Part shown: positions 51,166-60,709 of the stretch, one piece after another
How positions within the stretch are numbered: position 1 is the stretch's first letter
Layout: each line of letters opens with the position of its first letter
From: Chloroflexota bacterium
GTDB taxonomy: Bacteria; Chloroflexota; Anaerolineae; Anaerolineales; UBA11579
Assembly: GCA_016191875.1 (NCBI GenBank)
Contig: JACPVG010000001.1
Span: 28,482 to 92,481 of the forward strand
DNA length: 64,000 bases
Direction of reading: 5' to 3'
Position numbers and translations under genes: made by a program
Notes under the pieces: generated by a model
Told to the model about the DNA's origin: nothing
What the model saw: the letters and a program-made list of their open reading frames with translations, nothing else
Database searches by the model: none

Positions 51166-52020
51166 ATGGAATTCACGCTGGCTCTGGCACAGATCGACAC
51201 CAAACTGGGGGTCGTGGCTGACAATCTCGAAAAGCACCTCGAGTACATCGGCAGGGCCAGGAAGGAAGGCGCCGACCTGGTGGCCTTTCCGGAACTCTCG
51301 CTCACCGGCTACATTCTCCAGGACCTCGTCCCAACCGTGGTCTCCCGCCCGGAGGCCGACGACCCGACCTTCGCGCCGCTCCTGAAAGCCAGCAAGGACA
51401 TCGACATCCTGGTCGGCTTTGTGGACCGGGATGAACGCTCCCGCCACTACATCGCCGCCGCCTACCTGGCGGGCGGGGCGCTGACCCACGTGCACCGTAA
51501 ACTCTACCTGCCCACCTACGGGATGTTTGACGAGGGCCGCTTCTGGGCGGCTGGCGATTCGCTGCGCGCCTTCGATACCCGCTTCGGGCGCATCGGCGTG
51601 CTAATCTGCGAAGATTTTTGGCACGCCAGCCCGCCCTACCTGCTATGGCTGGACGGCGCCGAACTGCTGTTGTTCATCTCCGCCTCGCCCGGGCGCGGCC
51701 TGAGCGCCGCCCCGAAACTGGAATCGGCTCACTGGGTGGAACATGTCTGCGCCGCCTACGCCAGCCTGTTCACCTGCTTCGTCGCCAGCAACAACCGGGT
51801 GGGCTTCGAGGACGGCGTGACCTTCTGGGGCGGCGCATCCGCCTTCGGTCCCACCGGCGCGCTCCTCGCCCAGGGCCCCTACCACGAAGAAGCCCTGACG
51901 CTGGCGACCATCGACCTGCGGGAAATGGAACGCACCCGGGCGCGTCTGCCCCTGCTGCGCGACGAACGCCCCGACCTGGTGCAGCGCGAACTCGCCCGCA
52001 TCCTTGCCAGAGAACCCTGA
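51166..52020 (+). CDS. Carbon-nitrogen hydrolase (nitrilase family), probable glutaminase subunit of NAD synthase
   Basis: 284 residues. The catalytic triad Glu-Lys-Cys is clear: FPELSLTGY (Glu43), HRKLYLPTYG (Lys112), LICEDFWH (Cys148). The sequence style (DLVAFPELSLTGYILQDLV) resembles the N-terminal glutaminase domain of glutamine-dependent NAD synthases. The stop overlaps the nadE start (TGATG), so the two proteins are made together; the likely job is to supply ammonia from glutamine to NadE. The family also includes other amidases, so the substrate is inferred from context. Confidence 0.85.
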   Translation: MEFTLALAQIDTKLGVVADNLEKHLEYIGRARKEGADLVAFPELSLTGYILQDLVPTVVSRPEADDPTFAPLLKASKDIDILVGFVDRDERSRHYIAAAYLAGGALTHVHRKLYLPTYGMFDEGRFWAAGDSLRAFDTRFGRIGVLICEDFWHASPPYLLWLDGAELLLFISASPGRGLSAAPKLESAHWVEHVCAAYASLFTCFVASNNRVGFEDGVTFWGGASAFGPTGALLAQGPYHEEALTLATIDLREMERTRARLPLLRDERPDLVQRELARILAREP

Positions 52021-52841
52021 TGGACGAACTGAACATCCACACCGGCCTGGCCCGGGTGATCCTCACCGGCTTTGTCCACAGCGAAGTCACCCGCGCCGGT
52101 TTCCAGCGGGCGGTGGTCGGCGTGTCCGGCGGCGTCGATTCGGCCCTGTCCTGCGTACTGGCCGCCGAAGCCCTTGGCCCCGACAATGTATTGGCTATAC
52201 GCATGCCATACAAGTCGAGCAGCCCGGACTCACTCGAAGACGCCCAGACCTTCATCGACCAGTTAGGCGTGCAGTCTGCCACCTTCCCCATCACTGAGAT
52301 GGTCGAACCGCTGCTGGCCGTCATCCCGGAAGGCGAGAAGGTGCGGCGCGGCAACGTGATGGCGCGGGCGCGCATGCTCGTTCTGTACGATTTCTCGGCC
52401 GCCACCAAGGGGCTGGTCATCGGTACCAGCAACAAGACCGAGATTCTCCTCGGCTATTCCACCCAATGGGGCGACGCCGCCGCGGCCCTCAATCCGTTGG
52501 GGGACCTCTACAAGTGCCAGGTGCGCCAGTTAGCCGCCGCCCTGGGCGTGCCGGAGGCCATCCTTAAGAAGGCTCCTTCGGCCGACTTGTGGCCCGGCCA
52601 GACCGACGAAGGCGAATTGGGCTTCACCTACGATGAGGCCGACCGCCTGCTCTACCGTCTGGTGGACCTGCGCTACTCTGTTCAAGACTGCCTGTCCGCA
52701 GGGTTCGACGAAGGCTTCGTGCGCCAGGTACTCGAGCGCATCCGCCGCAACCAGTACAAGCGCGTCATGCCGCCGGTGGCCAAACTCTCCAACCGCACCT
52801 TCGGCTACGATTTCCTCTACCTGCGCGACTGGGGCACCTGA
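52020..52841 (+). CDS. nadE: NAD+ synthase, synthetase subunit
   Basis: 273 residues, the length of ammonia-type NadE. The ATP pyrophosphatase loop is GVSGGVDSALSCVLA. Further motifs are IRMPYKSSSPDSLEDAQ, GNVMARARMLVLYDFSA, GTSNKTEILLGYSTQWGD, NPLGDLYKCQVRQLAAALG and PSADLWPGQTDEGELGF. It adenylates nicotinate adenine dinucleotide and amidates it. The start at 52020 overlaps the nitrilase stop, so a two-subunit, glutamine-dependent enzyme is likely, in contrast to the usual fused form. Confidence 0.95.
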   Translation: MDELNIHTGLARVILTGFVHSEVTRAGFQRAVVGVSGGVDSALSCVLAAEALGPDNVLAIRMPYKSSSPDSLEDAQTFIDQLGVQSATFPITEMVEPLLAVIPEGEKVRRGNVMARARMLVLYDFSAATKGLVIGTSNKTEILLGYSTQWGDAAAALNPLGDLYKCQVRQLAAALGVPEAILKKAPSADLWPGQTDEGELGFTYDEADRLLYRLVDLRYSVQDCLSAGFDEGFVRQVLERIRRNQYKRVMPPVAKLSNRTFGYDFLYLRDWGT

Positions 52842-54136: not shown

Positions 54137-54258
54137 ACCAGGCAGGATTGATTGCTGACCATTCGTTGAGATTACCTTAGTACCAAGCGCGTCACACTTC
54201 CCCGTGTCCATCGTTGTCACAGGCATGGCGGTCTGACCAACAGACCACTGGCCTGGAC

Positions 54259-55899
54259 ATGCTGATCAAACCCATCCCCCGCAAATCCCTACCCGACCTG
54301 GTGGCGGGCAAACTCGCCGCCGCCATCCTCGCCGGGCAATTCACCACCGGCGCGCAGCTGCCGCCCGAACGCGACCTCATCAAAGACTTTGAGGTCAGCC
54401 GTTCCTCGCTGCGCGAAGCGCTACGCATCCTGGCCGACGCCGGCGTCATCGAGGCCCAGCAGGGCGTTGGCTGGTTCGTTTCACGGCCCAGCGAGCGTGG
54501 TCTGCTGAAAGCGCGCGCCCTGGCCGCCGAGATCGAACCAGCCCACCCCAAAGCCGCCAGGGCCAGCGCGCCCGCCGGGCCGCAGCGCCTGCCGGTGGCC
54601 GGCGAAAAACCCCTGCGCATCCCGAATCTGAAGAAAGACCGCCTCGGCACGTTCGAGTTCATTTCCTGGTGGGAACGCGAAAAGGTCAGGGCTGCCAGAG
54701 TGCTGGTGGTCGGGGCCGGCGCGCTGGGCAATGAGGTCGTCAAGAACCTGGCCCTGATGGGCATCGGCAATCTTTTCATCCTCGATTTCGACAATGTCGA
54801 AGCCGCCAACCTCAGCCGCTCGATTCTCTTCCGCGAATCCGATAGCGGGCGCGAGAAGGCCATGCTGGCCGCCGCCCGCGCCAAAGAGATCAACCCGGAG
54901 ATCAACGTCCAGTATCTGCACGGCGACGTGACCACCGCCATCGGCCTGGGCATTTTCCGCCGCATGGATGTCATCATCGGCTGCCTGGACAACCGCGAGG
55001 CCCGGCTGGCGGTGAATCGCTTCGCCTACTGGGTTAACAAACCCTGGGTGGATGGCGCTATCCAGGAACTGCTCGGGCTGGTGCGCGTGTTCGTGCCTGG
55101 TCAGGGCGCCTGCTTTGAATGCACCCTCACCGAACAGGCGCGCCGCGACCTGGCCCTGCGCTATTCCTGCCCGCTGCTGGCGCGCCAGAACATCCTGATG
55201 GGCAAAGTGCCCACCACGCCCACCATCGCCTCGATCATCGGGGCCATGCAGGCCCAGGAGGCTCTCAAACTCATCCACGCCATGCCCGTGGATGCCGGCA
55301 AGGTGGTTCACTTCAACGGCCTGAATAATTACATGCACACCACCGCTTACGTGCCGGACGAGAATTGCGAAAGCCATTGGACCTACGGCGAGATCACCGA
55401 AGTGCCGTTGCGGGCCGAGACCAGCACCCTGGAAGAACTGCTCAATGTGGCGCGCGCCGACCTTGGGCCAGAGGCGGTCATCGAACTCGACCAGGAACTG
55501 ATCCTCTCGCTGGCCTGCTCGCGTTGCGGCACCAAAGAGGCGGCGCTTAAGCCGATGTCGGCGGTGAGCTTCGAAGCCGCCCACTGTCCGACCTGCAACG
55601 AGATGCGCGACGTGCAGATGACCCACGTGATCACCGGAGGCGAATCGTTCCTGCGGCATTCGCTGCTCAGCGTGGGCGTGCCGCCTCTGCACATCCTGCG
55701 GGCCAACAACGGCGTGGAATACCGCTTCTATGAACTCACCGGTGACCTGCCGGAGACCCTGCACTTCAGGCACTTCCAGGAGACCAACGGCCGCCAGAGC
55801 GGGCGCGCCGGCAACCGGGTTCGCCTGGGCCGCCGGGTGAAGCTCCCTGCCGGGAATCGGCCCGGCCCCAGCCGCAAGCGCGTCCGCCTGCGGAAGTGA
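54259..55899 (+). CDS. E1-like ubiquitin-activating enzyme with N-terminal GntR HTH and C-terminal zinc ribbon
   Basis: 546 residues from the ATG at 54259 (the frame opens at a TTG, 54214). Residues about 10-80 are a GntR winged helix (GAQLPPERDLIKDFEVSRSS, VIEAQQGVGWFVS). After a linker comes the ThiF/E1 Rossmann domain: VLVVGAGALGNEVVKNLALM (GAGALG 152-157), DFDNVEAANLSRS, GCLDNREARLAVN. The crossover region GACFECTL (Cys285, Cys288) leads to YSCPLL (Cys304), where UBA3-type E1s have the thioester Cys. A ribbon CSRC/CPTC (420, 423, 443, 446) follows. The tail ends RKRVRLRK. It should adenylate the Ubl C-terminus. MoeB/ThiF roles are unlikely given the E2, RING and JAMM genes that follow. 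Confidence 0.88.
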   Translation: MLIKPIPRKSLPDLVAGKLAAAILAGQFTTGAQLPPERDLIKDFEVSRSSLREALRILADAGVIEAQQGVGWFVSRPSERGLLKARALAAEIEPAHPKAARASAPAGPQRLPVAGEKPLRIPNLKKDRLGTFEFISWWEREKVRAARVLVVGAGALGNEVVKNLALMGIGNLFILDFDNVEAANLSRSILFRESDSGREKAMLAAARAKEINPEINVQYLHGDVTTAIGLGIFRRMDVIIGCLDNREARLAVNRFAYWVNKPWVDGAIQELLGLVRVFVPGQGACFECTLTEQARRDLALRYSCPLLARQNILMGKVPTTPTIASIIGAMQAQEALKLIHAMPVDAGKVVHFNGLNNYMHTTAYVPDENCESHWTYGEITEVPLRAETSTLEELLNVARADLGPEAVIELDQELILSLACSRCGTKEAALKPMSAVSFEAAHCPTCNEMRDVQMTHVITGGESFLRHSLLSVGVPPLHILRANNGVEYRFYELTGDLPETLHFRHFQETNGRQSGRAGNRVRLGRRVKLPAGNRPGPSRKRVRLRK

Positions 55900-56759
55900 C
55901 CATGGCAGAGCATATCAGCCCTATGCGTTGGATTTCGTTGAGCGAAGGCGGTTTTGTGGAGAGCGTGGTGGGCCGCATCACCGTGGTGGTGCTGTTCGCC
56001 ATTCTCACCGCTATCACCCTGGCGCTGATCTTTCTCGTCAACCAAGTGGTGTGGCCGGTGGTGTTGAAGTTCACGCTCCTGGCCGCCACGGGGTTATTCA
56101 CCGGCCTGGTCTCGCGCCGCGTGCTGGACGGACACACCCGCCTGCTGCAATTCCTGGCGGCCGCCCTGGGTCTGCTGTTAGCCCTGGGGCTGGTGAACCC
56201 CGTGACGCGCGGTTTCATCGGCATCAATATGCTGCGCGCCTACCCGAACTTCCCGGAGTGGGACGGCGCGCTGCAATCGGGCGTGGGCTTCTTCTTCATC
56301 TGGCTGGCCGTGCGGGCAGGCCCCCGAACGCGCCTGGCCCCAATTCCGCCGGCCGTAAAGCCCAGGCGCGCCCCCCGCCGCGTCCGCCGGGCGGCCGCCC
56401 CGCCGGCCCCGCGGCCGGCCCGGGCGTCTGCCGCCAATGGTCGTCCGCAAATTTCCAGAACCCCGCGCATTAAGTCGCGCCCTGTGGTTTCGATTCTTAA
56501 GGCGACGCGCGGCTGGTTCGCCGGCCTGTGGCCCAGGGTACGGACCGGGCAACCGGTCGGGCCTCGCCCGGCACGCCGCCGGCGCGGGCGCGCCGTGCAA
56601 CTGAATGGTCGCGTTGAACACCGCTGCCCGTTCTGCCTGGAACTGGTCGAAAAGCGCGACCCGCGCGGGGTCAAGATCTGCCCGCAATGCAAGACCCACC
56701 ACCACGCCGACTGTTGGGAAGTGACCGGCATGTGCCAGGTCCCGCACGAGCATCACTGA
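55896..56759 (+). CDS. Membrane-anchored RING-type zinc finger protein (candidate E3)
   Basis: About 287 residues. Start GTG at 55896, overlapping the E1 stop (GTGA), or ATG at 55902. The N-terminal 140 residues hold three or four helices (ITVVVLFAILTAITLALIFL, VVLKFTLLAATGLFTGLV, LLQFLAAALGLLLALGLV, VGFFFIWLAV). A long Pro/Arg/Ala linker follows (about 140-240). The last 45 residues are a prokaryotic RING-like finger: CPFC, CPQC, then HHHADCWE, GMC and a final His-rich PHEHH. That is a C2-C2-HC-CH set able to hold two zinc ions. Position between E1 and E2 genes suggests E3 function at the membrane. Confidence 0.82.
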   Translation: MTMAEHISPMRWISLSEGGFVESVVGRITVVVLFAILTAITLALIFLVNQVVWPVVLKFTLLAATGLFTGLVSRRVLDGHTRLLQFLAAALGLLLALGLVNPVTRGFIGINMLRAYPNFPEWDGALQSGVGFFFIWLAVRAGPRTRLAPIPPAVKPRRAPRRVRRAAAPPAPRPARASAANGRPQISRTPRIKSRPVVSILKATRGWFAGLWPRVRTGQPVGPRPARRRRGRAVQLNGRVEHRCPFCLELVEKRDPRGVKICPQCKTHHHADCWEVTGMCQVPHEHH

Positions 56760-56796
56760 AGCGGCCGGCCGGAAGACGACAAGGAGAAGAACAGCC

Positions 56797-57648
56797 ATGA
56801 CCGATATCGAGATCACCCTGGTGCTGCCCAACGGTGGGGCGCGCAACGCCGAAGTGCCCGACGATGTACCTGTCAGGGAATTGCTGCCCGAACTGACCAC
56901 CTCGCTCGAATTGCCCACCACTGGCCCGGACGGCCGCCCGATGGGTTACCGGCTGGACAGCAAGGCCCTCGGCCACGAACTGAAGGAAGACGAGACGCTC
57001 GCCTCGGCCGGTGTGCCCGCCGACGACCGGCTCATCCTGACCGCCGACATCACCGCCGGCAGCGTAACGATCGGCGAAAGCCCGCGCATGCGGCGTTTGA
57101 AAGCCGACCACCAGCGCATGAATGAACTGGCGGCCCAGAGCGACCTGATCGAGTTCCAGGCCATTTCGACCCGCAAGGGCCTGCCGCCCGAGCGTTACAT
57201 CGTCACCTACCGCTGCAAGGGCATCATCGGCGTCGACCGCAGCGGCAAGCCGCGCTTCGGCGACAAGCACCAGGTGGAGATCTACCTGCACGCCCAGTAC
57301 CCTCAGCGCTGGCCGGGCATGAAGTGGCTGACGCCCATCTGGCATCCCAACATCAACCACATCAACGGCAGCGTCTGCGTGGATGCCGCCTGGTGGACCG
57401 CCAGCCGCTCACTGGACCGGCTGGTGCTGATGATCGGCGAAATGGTGCAGTACAAGAACTACCACGACGACCCGACCAAGCCGCCCTTCCCCTGGGACCC
57501 GGAAGCCGCCCGGTGGTGCCGCGACTTCCGCCGCGCCAACCCGCGCGCCTTCCCGGTGGATACCCGCGAACTGCTGCGCCCCGAACGGGTGCGCCTCAAG
57601 AAAACCGCCCCGCCGGCCAAAAAGTCCCCACGCGTCCGGCTGAAGTGA
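56797..57648 (+). CDS. Ubiquitin-like (YukD-type) domain fused to an E2 conjugating enzyme
   Basis: 283 residues. Residues 1-88 are a beta-grasp Ubl ending LTADITAG. Residues about 105-245 are a UBC fold: VTYRCKGIIGVDRSG, EIYLHAQYPQRWPGMKW, IWHPNINHINGSVCVDAAWW with the HPN triad (183-185) and the active Cys194, then LDRLVLMIGEMVQYKNY. The tail RPERVRLKKTAPPAKK and PRVRLK is basic. The Ubl part is about 83% identical (73 of 88 by hand count) to the free Ubl encoded at 57734. AAGGAG lies before the ATG. It receives activated Ubl from the E1; the fused Ubl may be a tethered donor, a regulator or a precursor. Confidence 0.92.
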   Translation: MTDIEITLVLPNGGARNAEVPDDVPVRELLPELTTSLELPTTGPDGRPMGYRLDSKALGHELKEDETLASAGVPADDRLILTADITAGSVTIGESPRMRRLKADHQRMNELAAQSDLIEFQAISTRKGLPPERYIVTYRCKGIIGVDRSGKPRFGDKHQVEIYLHAQYPQRWPGMKWLTPIWHPNINHINGSVCVDAAWWTASRSLDRLVLMIGEMVQYKNYHDDPTKPPFPWDPEAARWCRDFRRANPRAFPVDTRELLRPERVRLKKTAPPAKKSPRVRLK

Positions 57649-57733
57649 TGCACGATTCCCCCCGTGGATGATCGGAGCATGCACGTGCGAATCCGATTAT
57701 TGGTATCTCTATCCGTAGAAAGGAGTGTGTGAA

Positions 57734-58000
57734 ATGGCTGACGTACCTGTGACCGTTGTGCTTCCCTCTGGAGGCAGCCGCAATGCGGAGGTCCCCGACG
57801 ATGTGCCGGTCAAGGAGTTGCTGCCGGAACTGACCACGTCGCTGGAACTGCCCACCACCGGCCCGGACGGCCGCCCGATGGGCTACCGGCTGGACAGCAA
57901 GGCCCTCGGCCGCGAGCTCAAGGAAGAAGAGACGCTCTCCGAGGCCGGCGTGCCCGTCGATGACCGGCTGATCATGACCGCCGACGTCACCGCGGGATAA
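57734..58000 (+). CDS. Free ubiquitin-like protein (YukD-type beta-grasp)
   Basis: 88 residues. VTVVLPSGGSRNAEVPDDVP and VKELLPELTTSLELPTTG form the beta-grasp start, DSKALGRELKEEETLSEAGV the later part, and the chain ends DVTAG. A single C-terminal Gly is exposed, so no processing is needed before E1 activation; the usual Gly-Gly is not present. The ATG at 57734 is preceded by AAAGGAG at 8 nt, the best ribosome-binding site of the operon. A strong hairpin follows the gene. Substrate tag of the neighbouring E1/E2/RING/JAMM proteins. Confidence 0.9.
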   Translation: MADVPVTVVLPSGGSRNAEVPDDVPVKELLPELTTSLELPTTGPDGRPMGYRLDSKALGRELKEEETLSEAGVPVDDRLIMTADVTAG

Positions 58001-58011
58001 CCGCGGTCGCA

Positions 58012-58041
58012 AGGTGGGCGGGGTACTGACCCCGCCCACCT
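58012..58041 (+). terminator. 13-bp hairpin between the Ubl gene and the JAMM gene
   Basis: AGGTGGGCGGGGT pairs fully with ACCCCGCCCACCT around a 4-nt loop, 12 nt after the Ubl stop. No T-run. It may stop part of the transcription or protect the upstream mRNA, giving more Ubl than JAMM and downstream proteins. Confidence 0.6.
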
Positions 58042-58056
58042 GCCGCGGCGTGCCAC

Positions 58057-58719
58057 GTGCCGACCCAACGCATTCGTCTGTTACCGCCCATGCTGCAACA
58101 ACCGCGCTTCACGTCCATCCCCACCCGCAAAGCCCGGCGCTGGCTGATTCCCGGCGAAGAAGCCATCTCGCCGGCGGTGCAGGTCTTTCTCTCCCAGCGC
58201 GCCTTTGTGCGCATCTGCGCCCACGCCGGCAGCGACCTGGAGAACGAGGTCGGCGGCTGGCTGGTGGGCGTCTGGTGCTGGGACAAGACCCGTCAGGAGG
58301 AATTCATCCTGGTGCAGGCCATCATCCCGGCCGACCACACCCGCAACGGCAGCGCCTTCCTCACCTTCACCCACGAGAGCCAGTTGGAAATGCTGGCGGT
58401 GATGGAAGCGCGCTACCCCGGCAAGCACCTGGTGGGTTGGTTCCACACGCATCCGCGCATGGGCGTTTTTCTCTCCGGCTACGACCTGTTCCTGCACAAC
58501 AATTTCTTCCCCCACCCCTGGCAGGTGGCGCTGGTAATCGAGCCGCACAGTGCAGTGGGCGGCTTCTTCATCCGCGACCAGGACCACCACCTGGACGGCC
58601 GCCACCACTACGGCTTCCACGAGATTCACAACGGCCTGGAGCGCAGCGTGGTGCACTGGAAAAACCTGGAACTGGCCCAGGCCAACCTGGCCGCGGCCAA
58701 GAAGGAGCAATTGAGATGA
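58057..58719 (+). CDS. JAMM/MPN-domain metalloprotease (candidate Ubl deconjugase)
   Basis: 220 residues. The JAMM motif is complete: Glu64 in LENEVGGWLVG and HTHPRMGVFLSGYD with His130, His132, Ser140 and Asp143. It should bind zinc and cleave isopeptide or peptide bonds after Ubl. It could remove Ubl from targets and also cut the fusion at the Thr-Ala-Gly end of the E2-linked Ubl. The last part (about 175-220) is helical. Start GTG at 58057 or ATG at 58090; neither has a clear ribosome-binding site. The stop overlaps the next start (ATGA). Confidence 0.9.
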   Translation: MPTQRIRLLPPMLQQPRFTSIPTRKARRWLIPGEEAISPAVQVFLSQRAFVRICAHAGSDLENEVGGWLVGVWCWDKTRQEEFILVQAIIPADHTRNGSAFLTFTHESQLEMLAVMEARYPGKHLVGWFHTHPRMGVFLSGYDLFLHNNFFPHPWQVALVIEPHSAVGGFFIRDQDHHLDGRHHYGFHEIHNGLERSVVHWKNLELAQANLAAAKKEQLR

Positions 58720-59573
58720 CCCGTTATTCACGGTTGTACTACTACACCATCCTGGGCGCCATCGGCGGCCTGATCAGCTGGCAGGTCAGCAACATCCTTG
58801 GCCTGTCCTTCCTGCAGAACGTCTACCTCAGCGAGGTGGTCGTGGGCGGCTTGATCGGACTGTGCATCGGCCTGCTCATCGGTCTCTCCGAAGGGCTGGC
58901 GCGCCGCAGCCCGGTCTACGCCCTGCGGGCGGGGCTGACCAGCGGCGGGCTGGGGCTGGCCGCGGGCGCGTTGGGCCTGCCGCTGGCCGAGGGCGCGTTC
59001 CAGTGGCTGGGCGGCGAAATCTGGAGCCGGGCCCTGGGGTGGGGGCTGTTCGGGCTGCTGCTCGGCCTGGGCGTGGGCGTGACCACCGGCTCGCAATTGT
59101 GGAAGCCGGCCCTGGGCGGCCTGCTGGGCGGCGCTTTGGGCGGCGCACTGCTGGAAGCCGCCCGCGTCCGGCTGGCCGACCCGCTGGCCGGAAAGGCGCT
59201 CGGCCTCAGCCTGTTGGGGGCGGCCGTCGGCGCTTTCATTGCCCTCGTCGTGCTGCTGCTCTCGCGCGCCTGGCTGGAGGTCACCTCCGGCAAACTTAAA
59301 GGCTCTGAATTCATCCTGGACAAGTTCATCAAAGCCAGCGGTCCCTCGGCCTACATCGGCAGCAGCGCCCTCAAGGCAGATATCGTCCTGCCGGATCCGG
59401 ATATCGCCCCGCAGCACGCCATGCTCAAAGGCGCCGACCAGCACATGCTCCTCAAGGACATGAGCCGGGCGGGCACCTTTGTGAACAATCGCAAGATCGA
59501 ACAGGCCCAGCTCGGCGACCGCAACAAGCTCCGGCTCGGCAACACCGAACTGGTGTATCACGAAAGAAGGTAA
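58716..59573 (+). CDS. Membrane protein with C-terminal FHA-like domain
   Basis: 285 residues. The first 185 residues are Gly-rich membrane helices in paired repeats (VVGGLIGLCIGLLIGLSEG, GWGLFGLLLGLGVGVTTG, PALGGLLGGALGGALLEAAR), about six segments. Residues about 195-280 are an FHA fold: YIGSSALKADIVLPDPDI, APQHAMLKG, DMSRAGTFVNNRKI, LRLGNTELVYH. The residues that contact phosphothreonine are changed: GR is GS, and the Ser before xxH is Ala; the His is kept. It starts inside the JAMM stop codon (ATGA). Probably a membrane partner of the Ubl system. Confidence 0.8.
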   Translation: MTRYSRLYYYTILGAIGGLISWQVSNILGLSFLQNVYLSEVVVGGLIGLCIGLLIGLSEGLARRSPVYALRAGLTSGGLGLAAGALGLPLAEGAFQWLGGEIWSRALGWGLFGLLLGLGVGVTTGSQLWKPALGGLLGGALGGALLEAARVRLADPLAGKALGLSLLGAAVGAFIALVVLLLSRAWLEVTSGKLKGSEFILDKFIKASGPSAYIGSSALKADIVLPDPDIAPQHAMLKGADQHMLLKDMSRAGTFVNNRKIEQAQLGDRNKLRLGNTELVYHERR

Positions 59574-59578
59574 TCGCC

Positions 59579-60709
59579 ATGCACAATTTCTCCAGATACC
59601 TGACTCACGCGGCGTTGCTGTTTAGCGCCATCACGCTGGCCGGTTTCGGCCCGCCCATGCAGGCGGAAGAACCGGCCGAGGTCCGCATCACCCAGGTGGA
59701 TACCTCGAATTTCCCGCGCGTAACCGTCTACATCTCATCCGTGGACTCTGAAGGCAATCCGGTTCCCATCGACCCCAGCCGCCTGCAACTGGCCGAGAAC
59801 GGTGAAGCCATCCCACTCGACCAGATCGAAGGTATGGGAGAGGTCGGGCCGCTGACCACCCTGCTGGTGATGGACGTCTCCGGGAGCATGAACAGCGGGG
59901 GCAAACTCGATTCGGCCAAGGCCGCCGCCCGCGCCTACGTGGAGCAAATGCGTCCCGGCGACCAGGCCGGCCTGCTGGTTTTCAACACGCAGGCGACCTA
60001 CATCCAGGCCATCACCAGCGACCATGCCCTGCTCCTCGACGCCATCGACAGCATGCGCGCCCAGGACAATACCGCCATGTTCGATGCCCTCAACGAAGCC
60101 GTGGGCATCCTCGAACCGGTTTCCGGCCGCAAGGCCATCATCGTGCTGACTGACGGTCTGGATAATGTGAGTCAAGCCACTCCCGATGCGGTCATCGAAC
60201 GCATTGGCCCGGCCGGGCTTTCCATTTCGACCGTCGGGCTGGGCGTGCCGGGCCAGGGGCGCGGCGCACTCACTGCCCTGGACGAAGAAGCCCTGCGTGG
60301 CCTCGCCGCCAATGCCGGCGGGGTCTACGGCTATGCCGAGGACGAAGACAGCCTCCAGCGCCTTTACCAGACTTATGCCATCGCCATGCAGAGCGAGTAC
60401 GTTATCACCTACACCTCGCCCGCTGCGCTGCACGATGGCGTCAACCGGGCCCTGACGGTCTCGCTGGCTTCCCCGGCTGGCGCGGCCGATGCCGGCGCGC
60501 CTCAGGCAGTCTACAACCCCGGCGGGCTGGTACCCGAAGTCGCCCAGCCGGCTCCCTGGCCCGTGTTCGCAGCCATGCTGGCCGTCCTGGCGGGCTTGCT
60601 GTTGCTGCCCATACTGGCCGGCGCGCTGGGCGGAGTATTTGGCGGGCTGTCCGGGGCGGCGCGCCGCGGCTTCCGCCAACCGAAGGCCCGCGTGAAGTTG
60701 AAGGATTAG
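59579..60709 (+). CDS. Membrane-anchored von Willebrand factor A protein
   Basis: 376 residues. A signal peptide (AALLFSAITLAGFGPPMQA) is followed by a beta-sandwich region (35-90) and a vWA domain (about 93-275) with a complete MIDAS: DVSGSM (Asp99, Ser101, Ser103), NTAMFDAL (Thr165) and LTDGLDN (Asp192). A C-terminal helix (FAAMLAVLAGLLLLPILAGA) then leads to a short basic tail ARVKLKD that should lie in the cytoplasm. The tail resembles those of the E1 and E2 proteins. It starts 5 nt after the FHA gene and ends the operon. Confidence 0.85.
   Translation: MHNFSRYLTHAALLFSAITLAGFGPPMQAEEPAEVRITQVDTSNFPRVTVYISSVDSEGNPVPIDPSRLQLAENGEAIPLDQIEGMGEVGPLTTLLVMDVSGSMNSGGKLDSAKAAARAYVEQMRPGDQAGLLVFNTQATYIQAITSDHALLLDAIDSMRAQDNTAMFDALNEAVGILEPVSGRKAIIVLTDGLDNVSQATPDAVIERIGPAGLSISTVGLGVPGQGRGALTALDEEALRGLAANAGGVYGYAEDEDSLQRLYQTYAIAMQSEYVITYTSPAALHDGVNRALTVSLASPAGAADAGAPQAVYNPGGLVPEVAQPAPWPVFAAMLAVLAGLLLLPILAGALGGVFGGLSGAARRGFRQPKARVKLKD

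What the first reader, a model, noticed from the sequence alone, without database searches (positions are those of the whole stretch)
54259..60709. Complete bacterial ubiquitin-like conjugation and deconjugation operon with membrane FHA and vWA partners
Seven consecutive plus-strand genes encode an E1-like enzyme (ThiF fold, GAGALG loop, UBA3-like thioester Cys), a RING-type finger protein, a Ubl-E2 fusion with HPN and the active Cys, a free Ubl ending in Gly, a full JAMM protease, an FHA protein and a vWA protein. Several stops and starts overlap (GTGA at 55896, ATGA at 58716), so one operon is likely. Bacterial Ubl operons are known from comparative genomics, and the Bil and Bub types act against phage. 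The gene set and fusions here differ from those I know: GntR on the E1, Ubl on the E2, RING on a membrane anchor, and membrane FHA plus vWA proteins.
Basis: partly seen in the sequence, partly recalled or inferred. Interest (0 to 1): 0.95.

Follow-up and report, generated by a model that had tools for sequence, protein, structure and literature searches.

The report
Self-regulated bacterial ubiquitin-like conjugation operon
A conserved seven-gene operon of Anaerolineales bacteria encodes a predicted eukaryote-like protein-tagging pathway whose activating enzyme is fused to a GntR DNA-binding domain and likely switches its own operon, because a matching palindrome sits just upstream of that enzyme's gene in 55 of 58 loci examined.

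Summary
Seven plus-strand genes at 54259-60709 encode GntR-ThiF E1, membrane RING-like protein, Ubl-E2 fusion, free YukD-type Ubl ending in AG, JAMM protease, membrane FHA protein and membrane vWA protein. All seven are in the same order in 55 of 64 loci, with invariant catalytic residues. A JAB + E1 + RING + Ubl-E2 set is already in print (PMC7159879, passage), so the chemistry is a known kind. Two points are new to me. (1) A FadR/PdhR-type operator, TGGTCTGACCA, lies directly upstream of the E1 start in 55 of 58 loci and, in the family's genomes, only there. Nine GntR-less E1 loci have none at that place. The E1 is likely the repressor of its own operon, as BirA is. (2) A short basic-hydrophobic tail (R-I/V-K/R-L-K) ends most Ubl-E2 and vWA proteins and about half of the E1s, against 0 of 563 other ORFs. 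It may be a SUMO-interaction-like dock for the acidic Ubl; AlphaFold2 gave no support. Defence is not supported by what was searched. The FHA has lost its phosphothreonine Arg.

The parts
54230..54247 (+). predicted GntR operator GGTCTGACC-AACAGACCA (inner palindrome GGTCTGACC at 54230-54238), just upstream of the E1 start codon
   Evidence: GGTNNNACC at -25 to -45 in 55 of 58 loci; the only exact match of the extended site in the own genome
54259..55899 (+). E1 (546 aa): GntR wHTH 15-74, disordered linker, ThiF adenylation domain 134-370 with catalytic Cys304 (zinc ligands by analogy Cys285/Cys288/Cys370/His373), zinc-ribbon-like Cys4 420-446 and a C-terminal domain placed like a UFD up to about 495, disordered tail with RVRL/RVKL/RVRLRK
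55896..56759 (+). membrane protein with N-terminal hydrophobic segments, basic proline-rich linker and C-terminal RING-like C4-H-C-C-H finger (candidate E3)
   Evidence: (Cys244/247/262/265, His270, Cys273/280, His284 invariant in 25 rows)
56797..57648 (+). Ubl-E2 fusion: YukD-type Ubl 1-88 ending TAG, E2 with HPN 183-185 and Cys194, basic tail PERVRLKK...PRVRLK
57734..58000 (+). free Ubl, 88 aa, ends TADVTAG; distinct paralogue of the fused Ubl
58057..58719 (+). JAMM/JAB metalloprotease with E64...HTHP...S140..D143 and N-terminal QRIRLLPP
58716..59573 (+). multi-pass membrane protein (hydrophobic segments) with C-terminal FHA domain lacking the canonical phosphothreonine-binding Arg/Ser/Asn
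59579..60709 (+). vWA protein with intact MIDAS residues, hydrophobic (predicted transmembrane) segment at 324-360 and C-terminal tail ARVKLKD

Best explanation
The operon encodes a predicted membrane-anchored ubiquitin-like conjugation and removal pathway, and its E1, which carries a GntR DNA-binding domain, likely represses its own operon by binding the conserved palindrome just upstream of its start codon. Steps inferred: the E1 adenylates the C-terminal Gly of the free Ubl, takes it on Cys304 and passes it to Cys194 of the Ubl-E2. The RING-like protein would hold the charged E2 at the membrane so that membrane or membrane-near proteins are tagged, and the JAMM would remove the tag (and could cut the fused Ubl off the E2 after its TAG). 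The basic beta-strand-like tails of E1, E2 and the vWA protein would dock on the acidic Ubl, as SUMO-interaction motifs do, and so gather the machine. The vWA domain would sense something outside and the degenerate FHA would serve as a protein-protein module, not a phosphothreonine reader. Feedback: when Ubl and conjugation are in balance, free E1 dimers would sit on the operator. Shown: gene order, residues, operator sequence, tails. Not shown: any biochemical activity, repression, the docking partner, membrane orientation, the substrate.
Against: No experiment. AlphaFold2 left the tails unstructured and did not place the E2 tail on the fused Ubl (pLDDT 44-50 over 261-283), and the E2 active-site stretch 187-194 is itself below 50. 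The RING hit is under the Pfam cut-off, and the best PDB match of its profile is ribosomal eL43 at 0.022. The tail is less regular in E1: 11 of 63 at a higher threshold, where Ubl-E2 keeps 40 of 63 and vWA 35 of 55 against 3 of 563; over the last 60 residues the looser rule is not specific (FHA 36 of 57, RING 16 of 63, background 86 of 563); the JAMM copy is found in 13 of 61 against 37 of 563. Armatimonadota loci have acidic tails and still an Ubl of charge -4, so charge complementarity is not clean. One of nine GntR-less E1 loci does have GGTCTGACC, at -190. In one search the reversed control pattern gave one stray match in each of 5 of 24 genomes. A sigma-70-like promoter scan found none. 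Presence is patchy: 77 of 397 class genomes have any match. Repression, not activation, is inferred from the position of the site only.
Confidence: 0.68

Rival explanations
1. The GntR winged helix of the E1 does not regulate; it serves as a protein- or peptide-binding module, as the N-terminal winged-helix part of MccB-type E1 enzymes does (recalled), and the upstream palindrome is bound by some other GntR protein.
For: MccB, an E1 with an N-terminal winged-helix part (recalled), is among the structural matches (3h9j_D aligned over model 4-374, but at 11.8 A). No DNA binding has been shown.
Against: The domain is a true GntR by sequence (2.3e-18) with invariant DNA-contact Arg residues. The site tracks the fused gene in 12 of 24 family genomes and is absent at that place in nine GntR-less E1 loci with a whole 5' end (L095-L103; L095 has GGTCTGACC at -190).
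Confidence: 0.12
2. It is an anti-phage defence system of the Bil/CBASS kind that tags phage proteins.
For: E1, E2, Ubl and JAMM are the parts of Bil. PMC12687455 says such bacterial systems appear to act primarily against phages (passage). Generic PADLOC E1-E2 and JAB models hit (E1 3.5e-17). Presence is patchy, as defence systems often are.
Against: No PADLOC hit to the Ubl-E2 in any of 42 members. Immediate neighbours: 56 representatives of 106 scanned at 1e-10, and each of the 25 families shown (of 48) matches one member only, mostly methyltransferase models. nusG lies upstream in 19 and lexA downstream in 22 of 64 loci. The E2 was not found in phages or viral contigs, and one distant plasmid E2 at 30% identity was.
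Confidence: 0.15
3. The tails are acceptors, not docks: the terminal Lys of PRIKLK in E2 and vWA is the site to which the Ubl is attached, so the vWA protein is the main substrate.
For: Most Ubl-E2 and many vWA proteins end in Lys.
Against: Many vWA and E1 proteins end in D, G or H after the same core, so the alternating hydrophobic-basic core is kept and the terminal Lys is not.
Confidence: 0.1
4. The Ubl-E2 is chiefly a precursor: the JAMM cuts after TAG-88 and the fused Ubl is a second tag, as suggested for other Ubl-E2 proteins.
For: Gly88 is invariant in the fused domain (62 of 62 rows with a letter) and its TAG is preceded by I in 57 of 57, followed by a linker of low confidence (87-91). 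PMC7159879 proposes JAB release of such a lodged Ubl (passage).
Against: Free and fused Ubls are separate lineages with class-specific residues (free nearest to its own fused copy in 3 of 57 loci), which also fits a fixed structural role. Not exclusive with the main model.
Confidence: 0.25

Closest known systems
JAB + E1 + RING + Ubl-E2 set of vWA-MoxR subsystem 3 (PMC7159879, passage; cites Burroughs et al. 2011, which is not held here)
   Same: separate JAB, E1 and prokaryotic RING genes and one protein joining Ubl and E2
   Different: there the Ubl also bears EAD1 and the operon encodes an effector, typically caspase-like, in an FtsH-ternary vWA-MoxR system (passages); here there is a GntR-E1, a free second Ubl, and membrane FHA and vWA proteins
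Bil (BilABCD) anti-phage operon
   Same: Ubl, E1, E2 and JAB/JAMM in one operon
   Different: BilA has two Ubl domains and BilD has an inactive plus an active adenylation domain (PMC11354881 passages); here single Ubl and single ThiF domain, RING-like and membrane partners. PADLOC BilD hit is weak (2.1e-6)
Bub operons with CapW, CapH+CapP or CapK+CapS
   Same: bacterial Ubl conjugation operon under a transcription regulator encoded next to it (PMC13373217 passages)
   Different: there the regulator is a separate gene answering DNA damage; here the DNA-binding domain is part of the E1
Caldiarchaeum subterraneum ubiquitin cluster
   Same: Ubl, E1, E2, RING and deubiquitinase in one cluster (PMC11354881 passage); CsUb and its Rpn11 homologue are among structure and sequence matches
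   Different: YukD-type Ubl ending AG, E1 with GntR, Ubl-E2 fusion, membrane FHA and vWA
BirA biotin ligase-repressor (recalled)
   Same: an adenylate-forming enzyme with an N-terminal winged helix that would control its own pathway
   Different: different enzyme fold and substrate; the E1 would adenylate a protein
FadR/PdhR-type GntR repressors
   Same: winged helix and operator consensus
   Different: the helical effector domain is replaced by an E1

Membership tests
bacterial Ubl conjugation-deconjugation operon | E1 with ThiF fold and catalytic residues incl. Cys | tested here: met
bacterial Ubl conjugation-deconjugation operon | E2 (UBC fold) with catalytic Cys and HPN | tested here: met
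   UQ_con 8.2e-11, E2-25K/UBE2K 4.9e-9, 63 of 63; model weak around 187-194
bacterial Ubl conjugation-deconjugation operon | Ubl with free C-terminal Gly | tested here: met
   YukD; ends in TAG in 58 of the 60 rows called Ubl; of the other two, L075 is cut by the contig end and L094 is out of frame
bacterial Ubl conjugation-deconjugation operon | JAMM protease with Glu and HxH...SxxD | tested here: met
bacterial Ubl conjugation-deconjugation operon | covalent conjugation in cells | not testable with these tools
   needs wet-lab work
Bil | tandem-Ubl BilA and E1 with two adenylation domains | tested here: not met
   single free Ubl of 88 aa and single ThiF domain; definition from PMC11354881 passages
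Bub | family-specific protein models | not testable with these tools
   the defining paper is not held; the 25 of 34 PADLOC rows shown for the E1 name no Bub
RING E3 | eight zinc ligands in cross-brace order | tested here: inconclusive
   C-C-C-C-H-C-C-H invariant in 25 rows, but Prok-RING_1 below cut-off and no significant PDB profile match
FHA phosphothreonine reader | Arg of GR, Ser of SRxH and Asn of NGT (recalled canonical residues) | tested here: not met
   Arg replaced by Ser in 58 of 58, Ser absent in 52 of 58 (kept in 6), Asn absent in 57 of 58
GntR winged-helix DNA-binding domain | sequence match and DNA-contact Arg | tested here: met
GntR FadR subfamily | alpha-helical C-terminal effector domain (PMC4494728) | tested here: not met
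   the part after the winged helix is linker plus ThiF
GntR autoregulator | matching operator in its own promoter region | tested here: met
   binding itself not testable here
anti-phage defence system | defence-island context or mobility | tested here: inconclusive
   leans against: (56 of 106 immediate neighbours); protection itself not testable here

The most novel reading that the evidence does not exclude
A ubiquitin-type E1 that is its own gene's repressor: the charge state of the enzyme (empty, adenylate- or Ubl-bound) sets operator binding, so a bacterium measures its Ubl supply with the activating enzyme itself, and a SIM-like tail code shared by E1, E2 and a transmembrane vWA protein wires the pathway to an outside signal.
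Probability: 0.4. Interest if true: 0.88.

Novelty: new variant of a known kind. Interest (0 to 1): 0.74.

Why it matters
Bacterial ubiquitin-like systems known so far are mostly discussed as phage defence, and where regulators are described they are separate genes. Here is a chromosomal one with an E3-like RING, membrane partners and, it seems, a direct molecular link from Ubl activation to transcription. If true, it would be, to my knowledge, the first E1 acting as a transcription factor, and one carrier, Pelolinea submarina MO-CFX1 (locus L061), is a cultured species (recalled). The shared tail would offer a bacterial parallel to SUMO-interaction motifs.

Tried and rejected
Tail docking on the fused Ubl in cis: tested with AlphaFold2 on 42 rows; tail disordered, not supported, not excluded in trans (no complex prediction available). 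Charge complementarity: free Ubl -7.9 (58 loci) with E2 tails +5.2, against -1.45 (11 loci of the other type) with tails -3 to -6; only two or three lineages, so not a test, and Armatimonadota (Ubl -4, tails 0 to -4) do not fit well. Gene conversion between the two Ubls: rejected. Proteasome link: no PF00227 match in the own genome of about 91% completeness (control rang in 10 of 14). Kinase-FHA link: 15 kinase matches in the genome, none in the operon, and the FHA lost its key residues; its nearest solved FHA (3gqs) also reads GS at that place. Second YukD system (type VII secretion): only the two operon Ubls match YukD in the own genome. Prok-E2_B family: no match and no control rang, so uninformative. 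RING identity by PDB profile: no useful match. In the structure search with the Ubl-E2 model the first row by E-value is Bqt4 (TM 0.31, 16.4 A), ahead of the E2 and ubiquitin rows. Regulon beyond the operon: one further site with 2 mismatches in the own genome, no better than the reversed-pattern control. A first pass on operators used only 30 loci (27 with a site) and was replaced. L092 was first counted as a GntR-less control, but its held stretch begins inside the E1, so only L095-L103 are counted. Literature: ten searches; one search found 0 papers with all of gntr, thif, ubiquitin-activating, fusion, and the listings of the others showed no title on an E1 regulator fusion (the listed papers were not all opened). 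Burroughs et al. 2011 (recalled as the source for prokaryotic RING/E1/E2/JAB/YukD operons) and Ye et al. 2026 are not held, so it cannot be excluded that they already figure this gene order.
Full report

How conserved it is. 76 loci came from public genomes. Of the window plus 63 close loci (64 in all), 55 hold all seven genes in order on one strand; of the nine others, seven run off the contig, L046 contains Ns and L094 is split over several frames. Catalytic residues are invariant. Eleven loci (L092, L095-L104) are a simpler relative with separate Ubl and E2 and JAMM genes of about 400 aa, usually two. In nine of them (L095-L103) the E1 start is held and has no GntR; L092 begins inside the E1 and L104 holds no E1. 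In the class, 77 of 397 genomes hold any match; in the first set of 61 genomes, own included, 19. It is thus widespread but patchy.

Self-regulation. The E1 begins with a GntR winged helix (2.3e-18) whose Arg residues at the FadR DNA-contact places (recalled numbering) are invariant in 59, 60 and 60 rows with a letter. Directly before the estimated E1 start, at -25 to -45, 55 of 58 loci have GGTNNNACC and 48 the strict palindrome GGTCNGACC; three more keep TGGTCTGACTACCATACCA, and five loci were dropped because the stretch is cut. The common form reads TGGTCTGACCAnCATACCA. Background density in the same loci is 0.003 (strict) and 0.030 (loose) per 135 bp. Published FadR-type sites follow GTM-N0-1-KAC with TKGT/ACMA boxes (PMC4494728, passages), and this site fits. 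In the 24 genomes of the family the 19-bp site (up to 1 mismatch) occurs at one place in each of 12 genomes: the 11 with the operon and G023, whose contig ends inside a GntR-E1 just after the site; the 12 others have none; the reversed control pattern gave one stray match in each of 5 genomes. In the own genome the extended site has one exact match, at 54230-54247. Of the nine GntR-less E1 loci with a held start, none has the site at that place; L095 has GGTCTGACC at -190. Autoregulation by the E1 is therefore the best reading. Repression, and tuning by Ubl load, are inferences.

Tail motif. Most Ubl-E2 and vWA proteins and about half of the E1s end in a short basic-hydrophobic stretch (R-I/V-K/R-L-K): 43 of 63, 36 of 56 and 31 of 63 by a strict rule on the last 8 residues, 0 in the other four operon proteins and 0 of 563 other ORFs of the loci; 61 of 63, 54 of 55 and 32 of 63 against 18 of 563 by a looser rule on the last 12. 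At a higher threshold E1 falls to 11 of 63, and over the last 60 residues the looser rule is not specific. E1 often has a second copy near -25. The tails are disordered in both models. The simpler loci instead have acidic E2 ends such as DDLGINIL, and Armatimonadota loci have D-rich I/L-x-I/L stretches near the ends of E1, JAMM, FHA and E2. A SUMO-interaction-like dock for the Ubl is my reading. A SIM at the extreme C-terminus of SAE2 is described in PMC12687455 (passage). The in-cis model does not support it.

Membrane side. The RING-like, FHA and vWA proteins have hydrophobic segments; orientation is inferred. The vWA MIDAS residues are kept (58 of 58, 57 of 58, 57 of 57, 56 of 56 and 56 of 56 rows with a letter; role recalled). 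The FHA lacks the phosphothreonine Arg in 58 of 58 rows, the Ser in 52 and the Asn in 57.

Context. In 22 of 64 loci a lexA-type gene follows on the other strand, and in 19 a nusG and in 18 an rplA precede (one member of each named; other ribosomal genes named by eye). In the window the neighbours are a carbon-nitrogen hydrolase, NAD synthase, an MFS protein and an ABC transporter. No defence family stood out among 56 representatives of 106 immediate neighbours (25 of 48 families shown), none hit the Ubl-E2, and the E2 was not found in phages or viral contigs; plasmids gave one distant hit.

Relation to the known. A JAB + E1 + RING + Ubl-E2 set is described in PMC7159879 (passage) and bacterial Ubl operons under separate regulators in PMC13373217 (passages). 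Hence a new variant of a known kind, with the E1-regulator fusion and its operator as the new point as far as the searches named here reach.

Noticed in passing
L092, L095-L104: Simpler relatives in other Chloroflexota: separate Ubl and E2, JAMM genes of about 400 aa (usually two), acidic E2 C-termini (DDLGINIL); E1 without GntR where its start is held (L095-L103).
   Followed up: partly
L105:9992-18612, L106:3375-13752: Armatimonadota clusters with two E2s, several JAMMs (one with LysM in L105), Ubl, E1 and FHA; acidic I/L-x-I/L stretches recur at protein ends.
   Followed up: partly
L094:9902-12938: Ubl-E2 and FHA are each spread over several frames in this one genome; described only.
   Followed up: no
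L047, L064, L078, L085 and similar loci: In about a third of the loci the operon lies after nusG/rplA-type genes or before a reversed lexA, unlike in the window.
   Followed up: partly
window 51166-52841: Carbon-nitrogen hydrolase and NAD synthase genes next to each other, the two halves of a glutamine-dependent NadE (recalled).
   Followed up: no
plasmid NC_019754.1:40587-41045 (Crinalium epipsammum): A plasmid-borne E2 distantly related to the operon's E2 (30% identity).
   Followed up: no
fused Ubl, window 57046-57060: DITAG is kept in the fused Ubl although it is not a free end, which suggests processing or a binding role.
   Followed up: partly
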